Below, in pieces: positions 15,063 through 53,022 of a stretch of DNA of 64,000 nt (position 1 is the stretch's first letter; every line of letters starts with the position of its first letter). The DNA lies in contig NZ_FNRL01000013.1 of assembly GCF_900107795.1 (NCBI RefSeq), positions 62,001 to 126,000 on the forward strand, in the 5' to 3' direction. Both the position numbers and the translations under genes were made by a program. Under the pieces are notes generated by a model, which was given only the letters and a program-made list of their open reading frames with translations, was not told the DNA's origin and made no database searches. The DNA is from Chitinophaga terrae (ex Kim and Jung 2007) (GTDB lineage: Bacteria; Bacteroidota; Bacteroidia; Chitinophagales; Chitinophagaceae).

Positions 15063-15072
15063 GGGCGTGAGG

Positions 15073-15240
15073 TTTCGCGCAAAGTTGCCAAGAAGGCAAA
15101 GAAGCATAAGATGTTTTTAATAGAATTTTAAGAAAGCAAAGAAGCATTGATTATTAAAATATAATCGCACTTTGCTTTCTTACTCTTCTTAACAAAAATC
15201 TTATGCTTCTTTGCCTTCCTTTGCTGCTTTGCGAGCAATA
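15073..15240. repeat. Long imperfect inverted repeat, GCAAAG family
   Basis: A nested palindrome fills the gap between dnaJ and the RlmK-like gene. A 21-bp perfect arm at 15092-15112 (GAAGGCAAAGAAGCATAAGA plus T) matches 15198-15218 reversed. Inside it AAGAAAGCAAAG pairs with CTTTGCTTTCTT. The ends are TTTCGCGCAAAG and CTTTGCGAGC. The right end lies directly beside the dnaJ stop codon at 15241. Both flanking genes run leftward, so an RNA copy would form a long hairpin in the dnaJ 3' UTR. Confidence 0.85.
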
Positions 15241-35064: not shown

Positions 35065-36720
35065 ATGTTACAGCGATTAACTATCAGGAACTACGCCATT
35101 ATCGATTATCTGGAAGTTGATTTTTCTCAAAATCTGAACGTGATCACCGGTGAAACCGGGGCTGGTAAATCTATTTTACTGGGAGCGCTTTCCCTCATCC
35201 TGGGCGAAAGGGCCGATCCCGGCGTTTTATTCGATAAAACCGGCAAATGTATCATTGAAGGCTTTTTTAAAGTTAAAAAAGCGCAGGTGCTGCCGTTCTT
35301 CGAGAAGTATGAACTTGACCTGGAAGACCTGCTGATCATCCGCCGCGAGATCAGCGCCACCGGCAAATCCCGCGCCTTTGTCAATGATACCCCTGTAAAT
35401 ATCTCCCAACTGGGAGAACTTAGCTCTTCCCTGGTTGACCTGCACCAGCAGTTCGATACCCTTGCCCTGGCAAATGCCGACTTCCAGCGGGAAGTAATCG
35501 ACGCCCTGGTAAATAAACCAGTGGAACTGCAACAATATCAACAGATCTTTTCACAGTACCAGCAGGTTCAGAAACGCTATAAACAACTGGTTGAGAACAG
35601 GGATGTAGCTAATAAAGAGCTTGACTATAACCGTTTCCTCCTCGACGAACTCACTGAAGCCAACTTCTATCCAAACGAAATAGAGGAGCTGGATGCGGAA
35701 TTGCAAACGTTAAGTCATGCCGAAGAGATCAAAAACACCCTTAACCGCATCTTCTTCCAATTAAAGGAAGATGAGCAACCTATTCTTCAACAACTGAAAC
35801 AATTACAGGCATCCCTCAGCGGTTTGTCTAACTTCCATAAAGAAATTCCGGCCCTGGCAGAGCGGCTGCTCTCTACCTACGTAGAACTGCAGGATATAGC
35901 CAACGAGGTAGAAAGCATTAACGACCAGGTGTATTACGATGGCGCAAGGATCGAAGTAGTGAATGAGCGCCTTACCACCGGGTACCGCCTCTTTAAAAAG
36001 CATAGCGTACAAACCACCAACGAATTACTGGCTATCAAAGAAGTATTGGAGAACAAAGTAGCTGATGTCCTAAACCTGGATGACCAACTATTAGCATTGG
36101 AACAGGAACAGGCCAGGTTAAAGGAAAACCTCCAACAGCTGGCAGGCCAGATATCTGCTTACCGTAAAGAACAGGCAGCGCCATTTGCTCAACGCGTTAA
36201 TGAACTCCTGGCCCAGGTTGGTATGCCAAATGCAAGGCTGAAAGTAGAAATAACAGCCGGAGAATTGAATCCTCATGGACAAGATACTATCGACTTCCTT
36301 TTCGATGCCAACAAAAGCAACCAGTTTGCACCGGTAGGCAAAGTGGCCTCCGGAGGTGAACTTAGCCGTATTATGTTATGTATCAAGTCGCTGGTGGCTC
36401 AGTCGGTAGCCTTGCCAACCCTCATCTTCGATGAAATCGATACCGGCATCTCCGGTGAAGCAGCCCGCCAGGTAGGCATCATCCTGAAAGACCTGGCCAA
36501 ATCGCACCAGATCATCTGCATCACTCACCAGCCGCAGATAGCCGGAAAAGCAGATGCACACTACTTCGTGTTTAAAGATGCAAAAGCGGATAAAGTGACT
36601 ACCAGCGTTCGATTGCTGTCAGTGGAAGAACGTGTTAATAAGATCGCCCAAATGCTGAGCGGCGAACGCCCTACCGCTGCCGCCCTGGAAAATGCGCGCG
36701 AAATGCTCACGGGGGTATGA
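35065..36720 (+). CDS. recN: DNA repair protein RecN
   Basis: SMC-like ATPase recruited early to DNA double-strand breaks. Walker A GETGAGKS near residues 29-36, a long coiled-coil middle (about 150-360), the ABC-type signature ASGGELSRIML and Walker B TLIFDEIDTGISG. The conserved LHQQFDTLAL follows VDLH. At 551 residues it has normal length. The stop codon at 36718-36720 is immediately followed, with no spacer, by the first base of a 391-bp inverted repeat. No LexA-type operator was recognised upstream. Confidence 0.96.
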   Translation: MLQRLTIRNYAIIDYLEVDFSQNLNVITGETGAGKSILLGALSLILGERADPGVLFDKTGKCIIEGFFKVKKAQVLPFFEKYELDLEDLLIIRREISATGKSRAFVNDTPVNISQLGELSSSLVDLHQQFDTLALANADFQREVIDALVNKPVELQQYQQIFSQYQQVQKRYKQLVENRDVANKELDYNRFLLDELTEANFYPNEIEELDAELQTLSHAEEIKNTLNRIFFQLKEDEQPILQQLKQLQASLSGLSNFHKEIPALAERLLSTYVELQDIANEVESINDQVYYDGARIEVVNERLTTGYRLFKKHSVQTTNELLAIKEVLENKVADVLNLDDQLLALEQEQARLKENLQQLAGQISAYRKEQAAPFAQRVNELLAQVGMPNARLKVEITAGELNPHGQDTIDFLFDANKSNQFAPVGKVASGGELSRIMLCIKSLVAQSVALPTLIFDEIDTGISGEAARQVGIILKDLAKSHQIICITHQPQIAGKADAHYFVFKDAKADKVTTSVRLLSVEERVNKIAQMLSGERPTAAALENAREMLTGV

Positions 36721-37111
36721 TTTCACGCAGAGGGGCAAAGAAAGCAAAGAGGCAGAGATTTGGGTTTCACGCAGAGGAGCAAAGGGGCAAAGAGGCAAAG
36801 GATATATGGACCGGAGCGTATTTTAAGAAGGCAAAGCAATAAAATTAATAGAGATGGAATGATGTATTAATTAATTAAAATAGTTACCATAATACCATCC
36901 GTCTCTTTTGTTTTCTTAAAATGCGCTCCGGTCCATATCTTGCCAAACTCTGCTCCTTTGCGTGCCATAATAGTCGTCATAATGTCATCTCTCTCCTTTG
37001 CTTTCTTAAAATACGCTCCGGTCCATATATCCTTTGCCTCTTTGCCCCTTTGCTCCTCTGCGTGAAACCCAAATCTCTGCCTCTTTGCTTTCTTTGCTCC
37101 TTTGCGTGAAA
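36721..37111. repeat. Very long inverted repeat, GCAAAG family (116-bp arms)
   Basis: Arms 36721-36836 and 36996-37111 are reverse complements over 116 bp with only about three mismatches. The ends read TTTCACGC and GCGTGAAA. The arms consist of CAAAG words at 7-8-bp spacing around a core GGACCGGAGCG. The centre (36837-36995) holds a diverged second copy of the right arm (36905-36964), in direct orientation, so the right side is a tandem duplication. It fills the gap between the recN stop codon and the fabI promoter. No target-site duplication is visible. A small open frame across it is a by-product. Confidence 0.93.
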
Positions 37112-37119
37112 CCAAATCA

Positions 37120-37149
37120 TTGCTTCTTAGCCAGAAACTACTATTTTTG
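37120..37149 (+). promoter_or_regulatory. Promoter of fabI
   Basis: TTG at 37120-37122, 19-bp spacer, TATTTTTG at 37142-37149: a full match to the Bacteroidota consensus, ending 22 bp before the fabI ATG. It begins 8 bp beyond the end of the inverted repeat. Confidence 0.7.
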
Positions 37150-37170
37150 CCGAAATTAATTTTTGACCAA

Positions 37171-37983
37171 ATGGCTCATAACTTATTAAAAGGGAAGAAA
37201 GGTATCATTTTCGGTGCGTTAGATGAAAAATCTATTGCATGGAGAACAGCACTCCGTTGTGTGGAAGAAGGCGCTGAAATCGTGCTTACCAATGCCCCTA
37301 TTGCCCTCCGTATGGGTGAGATCAACAAATTGGCGGAAGCTTGCAAAGCGCCCGTTATTCCTGCGGATGTCACCAACATGGATGATCTGACCAACCTGTT
37401 CAACAAATCTATGGAGCATTTTGGCGGCAAGATCGATTTCGTGCTCCACTCTGTAGCAATGGGTATGAATATTCGTAAAGGCAGAAGCTATACGGACCTG
37501 GATTACGACTTCAATCACAAAACCTTTGATATTTCTGCAATTTCATTACACCGCGTACTGCAAACAGCTTATAAACTGGATGCACTGAACGAATGGGCTT
37601 CTGTAATTGCTTTATCTTATATCGCTGCTCAACGCGTATTTCCTGACTATGGCGAAATGGCTGATGCCAAAGCCCTGCTGGAATCTATTGCCCGCAGCTT
37701 CGGATACCACTATGGCGTTCACAAGAAAGTTCGTATCAACACCATTTCCCAGTCGCCGGTTAAAACTACCGCAGGCGGCGGCGTAAAAGGGTTCGACGGA
37801 TTTATGGCCTATGCAGATCAAATGAGCCCACTGGGTAATGCAACAGCCGACGATTGTGCAAACTACGCAGTAGCATTGTTCTCAGATCTGACCAAAATGG
37901 TGACCATGCAGAACCTGTTCCATGACGGAGGTTTCTCTTTCACCGGAATTTCCCAGTCTGTAGCTAATCAAATGGAAAAATAA
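37171..37983 (+). CDS. fabI: Enoyl-[acyl-carrier-protein] reductase (NADH), FabI
   Basis: Last reductive step of each fatty acid elongation cycle. Short-chain dehydrogenase fold with the FabI-type cofactor region GIIFGALDEKSIAW, and the catalytic Tyr-x6-Lys in FPDYGEMADAKALLES. The substrate-loop and SQSPVKTTAGGGVKGF follow as in FabI. The ATG at 37171 gives 270 residues; an upstream start at 37102 would enter the inverted repeat and precede the promoter, so it is rejected. It is monocistronic with its own promoter and a terminator behind it. Confidence 0.96.
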   Translation: MAHNLLKGKKGIIFGALDEKSIAWRTALRCVEEGAEIVLTNAPIALRMGEINKLAEACKAPVIPADVTNMDDLTNLFNKSMEHFGGKIDFVLHSVAMGMNIRKGRSYTDLDYDFNHKTFDISAISLHRVLQTAYKLDALNEWASVIALSYIAAQRVFPDYGEMADAKALLESIARSFGYHYGVHKKVRINTISQSPVKTTAGGGVKGFDGFMAYADQMSPLGNATADDCANYAVALFSDLTKMVTMQNLFHDGGFSFTGISQSVANQMEK

Positions 37984-52749: not shown

Positions 52750-53022
52750 TTTCACGCAAAGGGGCAAAAGGGGGGCAAAGAGGCAAAGGATTTTTTTTAA
52801 GGAAAATAAGAAGCTAAGATTGATTGAAGCGAATATTAAGAAAGCAGAAGAGGCGAAGATTATGATAAAACACAATCTTCGCCTCTTCTGCCTTGTTATT
52901 TTTGCTATGATCTTCTTATTTTCTTAAAAATTCGCTTCGATCCAATCTTAGCTTCTTATTTTCTTATTCTCCTTAAAAAAAACCTTTGCCTCTTTGCCTC
53001 ACTTTTGCGCCTTTGCGTGAAA
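52750..53022. repeat. Long imperfect inverted repeat, GCAAAG family (273 bp)
   Basis: Terminal TTTCACGCAAAGG at 52750-52762 and CCTTTGCGTGAAA at 53010-53022. Inner perfect stems: 16 bp at 52774-52789/52983-52998, 18 bp at 52805-52822/52943-52960, and 18 bp at 52844-52861/52874-52891 with a 12-base loop. A core resembling AAGCGAATATTAAGAA corresponds to the core of the 36.7-kb copy. The right end abuts the guaA stop codon (CTA at 53023-53025). It fills the whole 308-bp gap upstream of the lipoprotein gene except 35 bp. Confidence 0.9.

What the first reader, a model, noticed from the sequence alone, without database searches (positions are those of the whole stretch)
36721..37111. Family of very long GCAAAG inverted repeats; largest copy between recN and fabI
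The two arms of 116 bp differ at about three positions. This is far longer and more perfect than a terminator needs, yet it is too small and without target duplications to be a known transposon. The arms are built of CAAAG words at 7-8-bp spacing around a GGACCGGAGCG core. The middle holds a diverged, directly repeated copy of the right arm, so the element has grown by duplication. In RNA it would form a hairpin of over 100 bp, a long double-stranded RNA. I am not aware of a defined function for such elements, although similar GCAAAG-rich intergenic stretches are familiar in bacterial genomes as sources of spurious proteins.
Basis: partly seen in the sequence, partly recalled or inferred. Interest (0 to 1): 0.65.

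Follow-up and report, generated by a model that had tools for sequence, protein, structure and literature searches.

The report
Stop-codon-anchored word palindromes replacing gene terminators
In a soil bacterium of the genus Chitinophaga, an estimated two hundred long mirror-image DNA repeats built from short words mostly sit right at the stop codons of genes, where a close relative has either its own version of the repeat or an ordinary transcription terminator, and the two halves of each repeat change together; what moves them and keeps them matched is unknown.

Summary
TTTCACGCAAAG occurs 234 times in the 6.63-Mb genome (reversed control 2); 110 of 112 long palindromes in 1.65 Mb belong to it. 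The host is a Chitinophaga near C. silvatica. A typical copy is a ~180-bp near-perfect palindrome. The arms covary (22 of 47 pairs changed on both sides; 97.7% paired, 90.2% shuffled), yet sense-strand G.U mismatches do not exceed A.C, so matching looks DNA-level rather than RNA-selected. Ends sit on stop codons: 110 of 154 stop-side ends lie within -4..+14 nt, mode 0; 81 of those stops are TAG. At 19 orthologous sites C. silvatica has its own, differing element (11), a terminator by rule (6) or another stem-loop (2): the elements replace terminators. Other Chitinophagaceae carry analogous palindromes of other words. Best reading: bidirectional terminator hairpins that spread by copying, arms kept identical by DNA template switching. 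The mobiliser is unknown; no Y1/RAYT transposase was found in this genome. New variant of a known kind.

The parts
35065..36720 (+). recN (551 aa); its TGA stop at 36718-36720 directly precedes TTTCACGC
36718..36836 (+). left arm of the palindrome
36996..37114 (-). right arm of the palindrome
36808..36818 (+). conserved core GGACCGGAGCG; in many copies of this genome it is found in one arm only, in this copy in both arms
36879..36938 (-). diverged internal repeat (83% to 36969-37028) holding a third core copy
36721..37112 (.). whole element, from TTTCAC after the recN stop to GTGAAAC
37142..37149 (+). TATTTTTG, conserved upstream of fabI in many relatives; fits the recalled Bacteroidota -7 box. 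The poly-T stretch that relatives have upstream of it is absent here
   Evidence: 33 relatives viewed; promoter consensus recalled
37171..37983 (+). fabI (270 aa)
52750..53022 (.). second copy; its right end abuts a TAG stop on the minus strand (distance 0)
15072..15239 (.). third, smaller copy

Best explanation
The feature is one of roughly 220 copies (estimate) of a palindromic repeat that spreads within the genome and takes the place of ordinary intrinsic terminators at gene 3' ends. SHOWN: a copied unit GTTTCAC...GTGAAAC with sharp edges; abutment on stop codons; terminators or stem-loops at the orthologous empty sites; co-variation of the arms; species-specific versions at shared sites. 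INFERRED: it works as a bidirectional terminator and 3'-end hairpin for the flanking genes. The two arms are kept identical at the DNA level, by polymerase template switching or hairpin-templated copying, rather than by selection on an RNA stem. Growth and rewriting run outward until purifying selection stops them at the last tolerated base, the third base of a stop codon. The element's first base G would turn TA(A/G) into TAG, while TGA is left whole. What copies the element to new sites is not known.
For: Copying: 95-96% identical whole elements at unrelated loci, with similarity ending at GTTTCAC/GTGAAAC in 13 aligned copies. One of that group, L058:15107, lies at a site where C. silvatica has a plain terminator. 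Position: 49 of 107 elements lie between convergent ORFs against 211 of 1283 ORF pairs (p 1.7e-11). 110 of 154 stop-side ends are within -4..+14 nt of the stop, mode 0, against 2 of 63 start-side ends. Stops TAG 81, TAA 16, TGA 13 against background 295/674/207 (p 6e-24). Replacement: of 19 own-element sites mapped in C. silvatica, 11 carry an element (10 by rule, 1 by eye), 6 a terminator by rule, 2 other stem-loops by eye. In reverse, 12 of 17 mapped silvatica elements are shared, 5 are silvatica-only. Convergent gaps with an element: 0 of 53 have a terminator outside it; without one and >=20 bp: 65 of 103 do (53 shorter gaps not scored). DNA level: no significant G.U excess; within-copy arm identity median 0.934 v 0.78 between copies; 22 of 47 pairs changed on both sides, 185 cells v 55 shuffled; core orientation relative to the gene 14 v 13. 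Template switching homogenises inverted-repeat arms (PMC8604942 and PMC3820800, start of abstract).
Against: No expression or term-seq data. A simple stem plus T-run rule finds a terminator inside only 32 of 109 elements, against 18 of 109 block-shuffled ones: weak support for termination. No canonical U-tract follows the full hairpin. Template switching alone does not explain spread to new sites. The stop anchoring may reflect a targeting rule rather than selection. TAG is also enriched where 1-14 bases separate it from the element end (27 of 44), which the first-base-G idea does not cover. A G before TAG is enriched (37 of 81 v 83 of 295, p 0.0045), an unexplained hint of a GTAG tag. In codirectional outer arms G.U is slightly above A.C (48 v 38, not significant), so weak RNA selection is not excluded. 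A few stops go the other way: own TAA or TGA where C. silvatica has TAG.
Confidence: 0.55

Rival explanations
1. A non-autonomous transposon of the REP/RAYT or MITE type, moved in trans by a transposase; stop-codon abutment is a by-product of target choice and selection.
For: Patchy bursts across the family: 234 copies of the word here, 1 and 0 in the two congeners of the draw, 61 v 1 within another genus. Near-identical dispersed copies with sharp ends. GTAG REPs often give TAG stops to flanking ORFs (PMC3733652, passage), and GTAG is enriched here. 17 of 18 genomes with >=10 copies hold a Y1 transposase v 89 of 129 others (p 0.024).
Against: No Y1_Tnp match in this genome nor in C. dinghuensis or C. 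japonensis; C. silvatica has one partial match, over the cut-off. Start-side ends lack TAG (4 of 64 v 69 of 154 stop-side). No gene shaped like a mobiliser was recognised by eye between closely spaced copies of the sample. No target duplication recognised by eye. The palindromes are far longer than REPs. The old terminator is lost rather than displaced at the sites mapped.
Confidence: 0.25
2. Ordinary intrinsic terminators elongated by selection, with arms co-evolving through compensatory mutation of the RNA hairpin.
For: Location at 3' ends and replacement of terminators; strong covariation.
Against: G.U intermediates do not significantly exceed A.C. Core orientation is independent of transcription (14 v 13). 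Whole elements are copied between loci at 95-96% identity.
Confidence: 0.12
3. A low-complexity or assembly artefact.
For: Arms are made of repeated words; two contigs carry the word at the same offset from their start.
Against: 234 v 2 for the reversed word. Other genomes (C. silvatica, C. dinghuensis) hold 167 and 114 of TTTCNCGCAAAG, reversed controls 2 and 8. Covariation reached by 0 of 500 shuffles.
Confidence: 0.01

Closest known systems
GTAG/CGTC REP elements and BIMEs (REP/RAYT)
   Same: Palindromic, mostly outside genes, species-specific high-copy families; can supply TAG stops to flanking ORFs (PMC3733652, passages seen; BIME name recalled)
   Different: REP stems 5-13 bp (same paper) v median arm 76 bp here; no RAYT/Y1 match in this genome; no tag at start-side ends; replaces terminators
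Bidirectional intrinsic terminators
   Same: Same place and, by inference, same job; found at orthologous empty sites
   Different: Much longer, dispersed copied family, no canonical U-tract after the full stem, arms match at DNA level
MITEs, BOX/RUP-type small repeats (recalled)
   Same: Small, non-coding, dispersed, no transposase of their own
   Different: No target duplication or related transposase recognised; the whole element is the palindrome
Quasipalindromes corrected by template switching (PMC7202029, PMC8604942, PMC3820800: abstracts' start)
   Same: Arms made identical
   Different: Here in a dispersed, copied family at stop codons

Membership tests
REP/RAYT (GTAG REP) | Y1 tyrosine transposase (RAYT) in the genome | tested here: not met
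   PF01797: 0 matches in own genome
REP/RAYT (GTAG REP) | short stem (5-13 bp) | tested here: not met
REP/RAYT (GTAG REP) | GTAG tag at the foot as part of the element | tested here: not met
   TAG at 4 of 64 start-side ends v 69 of 154 stop-side ends; G before TAG in 37 of 81: belongs to the gene side, though GTAG is enriched
MITE | target-site duplication | tested here: inconclusive
   none recognised by eye; no empty site from the same species was available
MITE | related autonomous transposon in the genome | tested here: inconclusive
Intrinsic terminator | position at gene 3' end | tested here: met
Intrinsic terminator | stem followed by U-tract | tested here: inconclusive
   32 of 109 v 18 of 109 block-shuffled
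Intrinsic terminator | ends transcription | not testable with these tools
   needs term-seq
integron attC sites | cassette array | tested here: not met
   copies lie beside chromosomal genes in blocks collinear with C. silvatica; integrase and core-site consensus not tested (recalled)
Rfam families | match at gathering score | tested here: not met
   E-value search of window 36400-37400: 8 matches, all below gathering score, 7 of them microRNA precursor models

The most novel reading that the evidence does not exclude
A dedicated, still unknown process in Chitinophagaceae writes long palindromes from lineage-specific words of about 7-8 bases at gene ends. It overwrites the intrinsic terminator from the second base of the stop codon outward, and keeps rewriting all copies of a genome to the current vocabulary, so that sister species share the sites but not the sequence.
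Probability: 0.25. Interest if true: 0.9.

Novelty: new variant of a known kind. Interest (0 to 1): 0.68.

Why it matters
If right, a bacterium has exchanged many of its ordinary terminators for a spreading palindromic repeat, a case where a selfish or self-templating DNA element takes over a routine function. It makes an old question testable: are long bacterial palindromes kept symmetric by RNA selection or by DNA template switching? The G.U/A.C comparison on copied families addresses it with sequence alone. It also suggests that GCAAAG-like intergenic stretches are a structured element, not noise.

Tried and rejected
Long dsRNA function: no significant G.U excess. RAYT: no Y1 match here, although the family-wide association (p 0.024) runs the other way. 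Loss of SbcCD as the cause: SbcD over the cut-off in 19 of 147 family genomes, none here; 1 of 18 genomes with >=10 copies has it, not significant (p 0.47). Plasmid carriage: no match for one typical copy (phages and viral contigs not searched). Known RNA family: none at gathering score. TA target duplication: start-side ends lack TA/TAG. An element-borne TAG: TAG is rare at start-side ends, and core orientation is random to the gene. Strand bias of the C. japonensis word: the listing showed plus hits only, but it is capped and the whole counts are even (254 and 266), so no claim. Literature: the searches listed no description of this family; the complement of the 12-mer appears in three unrelated papers (listing only). 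Of PMC4060949 and PMC3733652 I saw passages; of PMC8604942, PMC3820800 and PMC7202029 the start of the abstract in the listing.

Limits: genes are ORFs of >=100 aa, no gene finder. Element ends were set by motif search. Loci were mostly chosen because they hold copies, so density rests on 12 chunks of 20 kb chosen without regard to known copies (8 family copies in 240 kb, range 95-435 for the genome). The first scan let runs of N count as inverted repeat: one of the 110 (L117:13738-14217) borders such a run; without it there are 109 elements, 109 of 153 stop-side ends in range, stops 81/16/12, contexts 49/52/5, and nothing changes. Of 110 elements only 19 could be mapped within 1.5 kb. A looser first mapping (3 kb limit, 14 sites) holds four more sites with a terminator-like hairpin by eye but extra inserted DNA; they are not counted. 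In one search, 14 of 31 silvatica candidates were unmapped and dropped. C. silvatica stretches were chosen for elements or synteny, which inflates sharing; the 11 pairs were listed by hand. The shuffles are one two-base-block shuffle per element.

Full report
OBSERVATION. The palindrome is as described: arms 36718-36836 and 36996-37114, 119 nt, 97% complementary, fold z-score -25.9, with an inner 60-nt direct repeat at 83%. It lies between recN (TGA at 36718-36720) and fabI (ATG at 37171). The genome (6.63 Mb, 64 contigs) holds 234 exact TTTCACGCAAAG, against 2 for the word read backwards. In 1.65 Mb (80 stretches, 68 chosen for known copies, plus the window), 112 long inverted repeats were found and 110 are of this family; one of the 110 borders a run of N. 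Median span is 191 bp, median arm 76 bp. Twelve 20-kb chunks chosen without regard to known copies hold 8 family copies, i.e. about 220 genome-wide (range 95-435).

ANATOMY. A typical copy runs GTTTCACGCAAAG - GCAAAG/GCATAAG words - T/A-rich stretch - GCAAAGG - variable apical stem and small loop, then back, ending GTGAAAC. Thirteen similar copies aligned with 60 bp of flank lose recognisable similarity outside GTTTCAC/GTGAAAC, apart from outer layers of the same word in some. One arm often carries GACCGGAGCGAATTTTAAG and the other TTTTAAGGAAAATAAG, so many copies are asymmetric inside: by a rule with 4 mismatches, 57 of 112 inverted repeats show the core in one arm only, 8 in both arms, 47 in neither. 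The window copy has it in both arms. Many copies have extra outer layers of TTTCACGCNNAGG, usually on both sides.

CO-VARIATION. Forty-five copies were aligned, the 45 best of 69 that passed a similarity and length filter out of 110. Of 47 consensus pairs, 22 have changes on both sides; 97.7% of cells pair (shuffled 90.2%, 0 of 500 shuffles reach it); 185 cells are changed on both sides (shuffled 55); sliding the partner by 1-3 columns drops pairing to 49-61%. Within-copy arm identity over 60 nt is 0.934 at the median (104 copies), between copies 0.78. In codirectional elements, where the sense strand is known, outer-arm mismatches are 48 G.U and 38 A.C (p 0.33); over whole elements 113 and 106 (p 0.69); in convergent ones, where no bias is expected, 16 v 23 and 91 v 81. 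RNA selection should favour G.U. The near parity points to matching at the level of DNA. Core orientation relative to the upstream gene is 14 v 13 in the codirectional asymmetric copies, also against a strand-specific RNA role.

POSITION. Of 107 elements with two flanking ORFs, 49 are convergent, 53 codirectional, 5 divergent (one more lay inside a called ORF, two lacked a neighbour); all ORF pairs of the sample give 211/851/221. Of 154 stop-side ends, 110 lie within -4..+14 nt of the stop, 24 are deeper (the ORF reads into the element), 20 are farther. Of 63 start-side ends 2 fall in that range. The 110 stops are 81 TAG, 16 TAA, 13 TGA against 25% TAG in the background. The commonest junction is TAG|TTTCACGC; TGA|TTTCACGC is also seen. 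Where 1-14 bases lie between, 27 of 44 are still TAG. TAG is rare at start-side ends (4 of 64), so it belongs to the gene rather than the element. G before TAG is somewhat enriched (37 of 81 v 83 of 295), unexplained.

RELATIVES. The fabI search returned 80 relatives; the closest is C. silvatica (97% FabI identity). Aligned DNA is about 78% identical. In the recN-fabI gap C. silvatica has its own palindrome of the same style. Most other Chitinophaga viewed have a T-run and ACTATTTTTG before fabI, some with other hairpins in the gap; here the T-run is gone and the element stops before ACTATTTTTG (33 relatives viewed). Of 19 own-element sites mapped in C. silvatica, 11 carry an element there (one called by eye, L054:10061), 6 a terminator by rule (one, L049:8053, in a long gap and weak), and 2 other stem-loops by eye. 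In reverse, 12 of 17 mapped silvatica elements are shared and 5 are silvatica-only; at 4 of these 5 this genome has a terminator-like stem by eye, at the fifth a small TTTTCACGCAG stem. Taking those 5 against 207 element-free 3' ends aligned, sharing is far above chance (p 2e-10), though the stretches were partly chosen for elements. Yet orthologous elements are hardly more alike than other own-silvatica pairs (median score 42 v 38; own-own 68, silvatica-silvatica 54; 11 pairs): sites are inherited, or are preferred, while sequences are species-specific. In C. silvatica the outer CTCGC/CGAGC layer starts 0-3 nt after the stop in 11 of 14 stop-side ends; the 14 stops are 10 TAG and 4 TAA. Protein C-termini mostly keep their length: 22 of 34 gene ends compared are equal. 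At 9 of the 34 the own stop is TAG where C. silvatica shows TAA or TGA; a few go the other way, among them recN itself (own TGA, silvatica TAG).

BREADTH. Word counts are patchy. Among 147 family genomes (own included) 18 have 10 or more copies; the two congeners in the draw have 1 and 0. C. silvatica has 167 and C. dinghuensis 114 of TTTCNCGCAAAG; four other species have 4-11. C. japonensis has 520 of TTTGGNATTTGG, nine others 12 or fewer. In 801 kb around fabI from 79 relatives, 19 long palindromes were found; by eye 12 of them are built of repeated short words that differ from species to species (e.g. ATTTGGTTATTTG, AGTGTGAG, GTGAATA), and 4 are versions of one site in related species. Sixteen of 21 stop-side ends are within 11 nt of the stop. 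So the style, not the sequence, is widespread.

FUNCTION AND MECHANISM. Of convergent gaps with an element, 0 of 53 have a terminator outside it; of those without one and at least 20 bp long, 65 of 103 do (53 shorter gaps not scored). The element fills the gap, so by inference it ends transcription there or little else does. That is the main argument for a terminator role; direct terminator scoring is weak (32 of 109 v 18 of 109 shuffled). Spread by copying is shown by 95-96% identical copies at unrelated loci, one of them at a site empty in C. silvatica. Arm identity by template switching is inferred; the process is known (PMC8604942 and PMC3820800, start of abstract). The pile-up at stop codons fits an outward-overwriting process stopped by selection at the last tolerated base, or an unknown targeting rule; I cannot decide. 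A Y1 transposase match is absent here, in C. dinghuensis and in C. japonensis, and partial in C. silvatica, although in the family draw high-copy genomes hold one more often (17 of 18 v 89 of 129, p 0.024). SbcD is missing here and over the cut-off in only 19 of 147 family genomes, a permissive but not explanatory background.

COMPARISON. The nearest known kind is the REP element, whose GTAG tag often supplies TAG stops (PMC3733652, passage). Stem length, tag and transposase tests fail, so I do not file it as REP. It works, by inference, like a bidirectional terminator. No description of this family was listed in the searches.

Noticed in passing
L135 8509-8654 and genome G154 (C. japonensis): A separate palindromic vocabulary: TTTGGNATTTGG, 520 hits (reversed control 6), against 12 or fewer in nine other species.
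   Followed up: partly
L133 5827-5923, 6981-7126, 8717-8833 (C. solisilvae): Three palindromes of ATTTGGTTATTTG-like words in 10.8 kb, one with its right end exactly at a stop.
   Followed up: partly
L137, recN-fabI gap (C. rupis): GTCCATGGTCCATAG word palindrome in the orthologous gap.
   Followed up: no
L214 5690-5851 (C. silvatica): A different long palindrome, GGGCGGGGCTTGCCCCCGCCC with an inner GATGAAAC, unrelated to the words here.
   Followed up: no
L054 16443-16763; L039 17360-17932; L074 11223-11780: Nested or tandem copies within copies: the family's growth by duplication.
   Followed up: no
window 36867-37115, minus strand: 82-aa ORF made of the repeat (KGAKKAKR...), likely a spurious protein source.
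   Followed up: no
G000:C23:333-344 and G000:C28:333-344: The word lies at the same offset from the start of two contigs, suggesting that the assembly breaks at, or duplicates, a copy.
   Followed up: no
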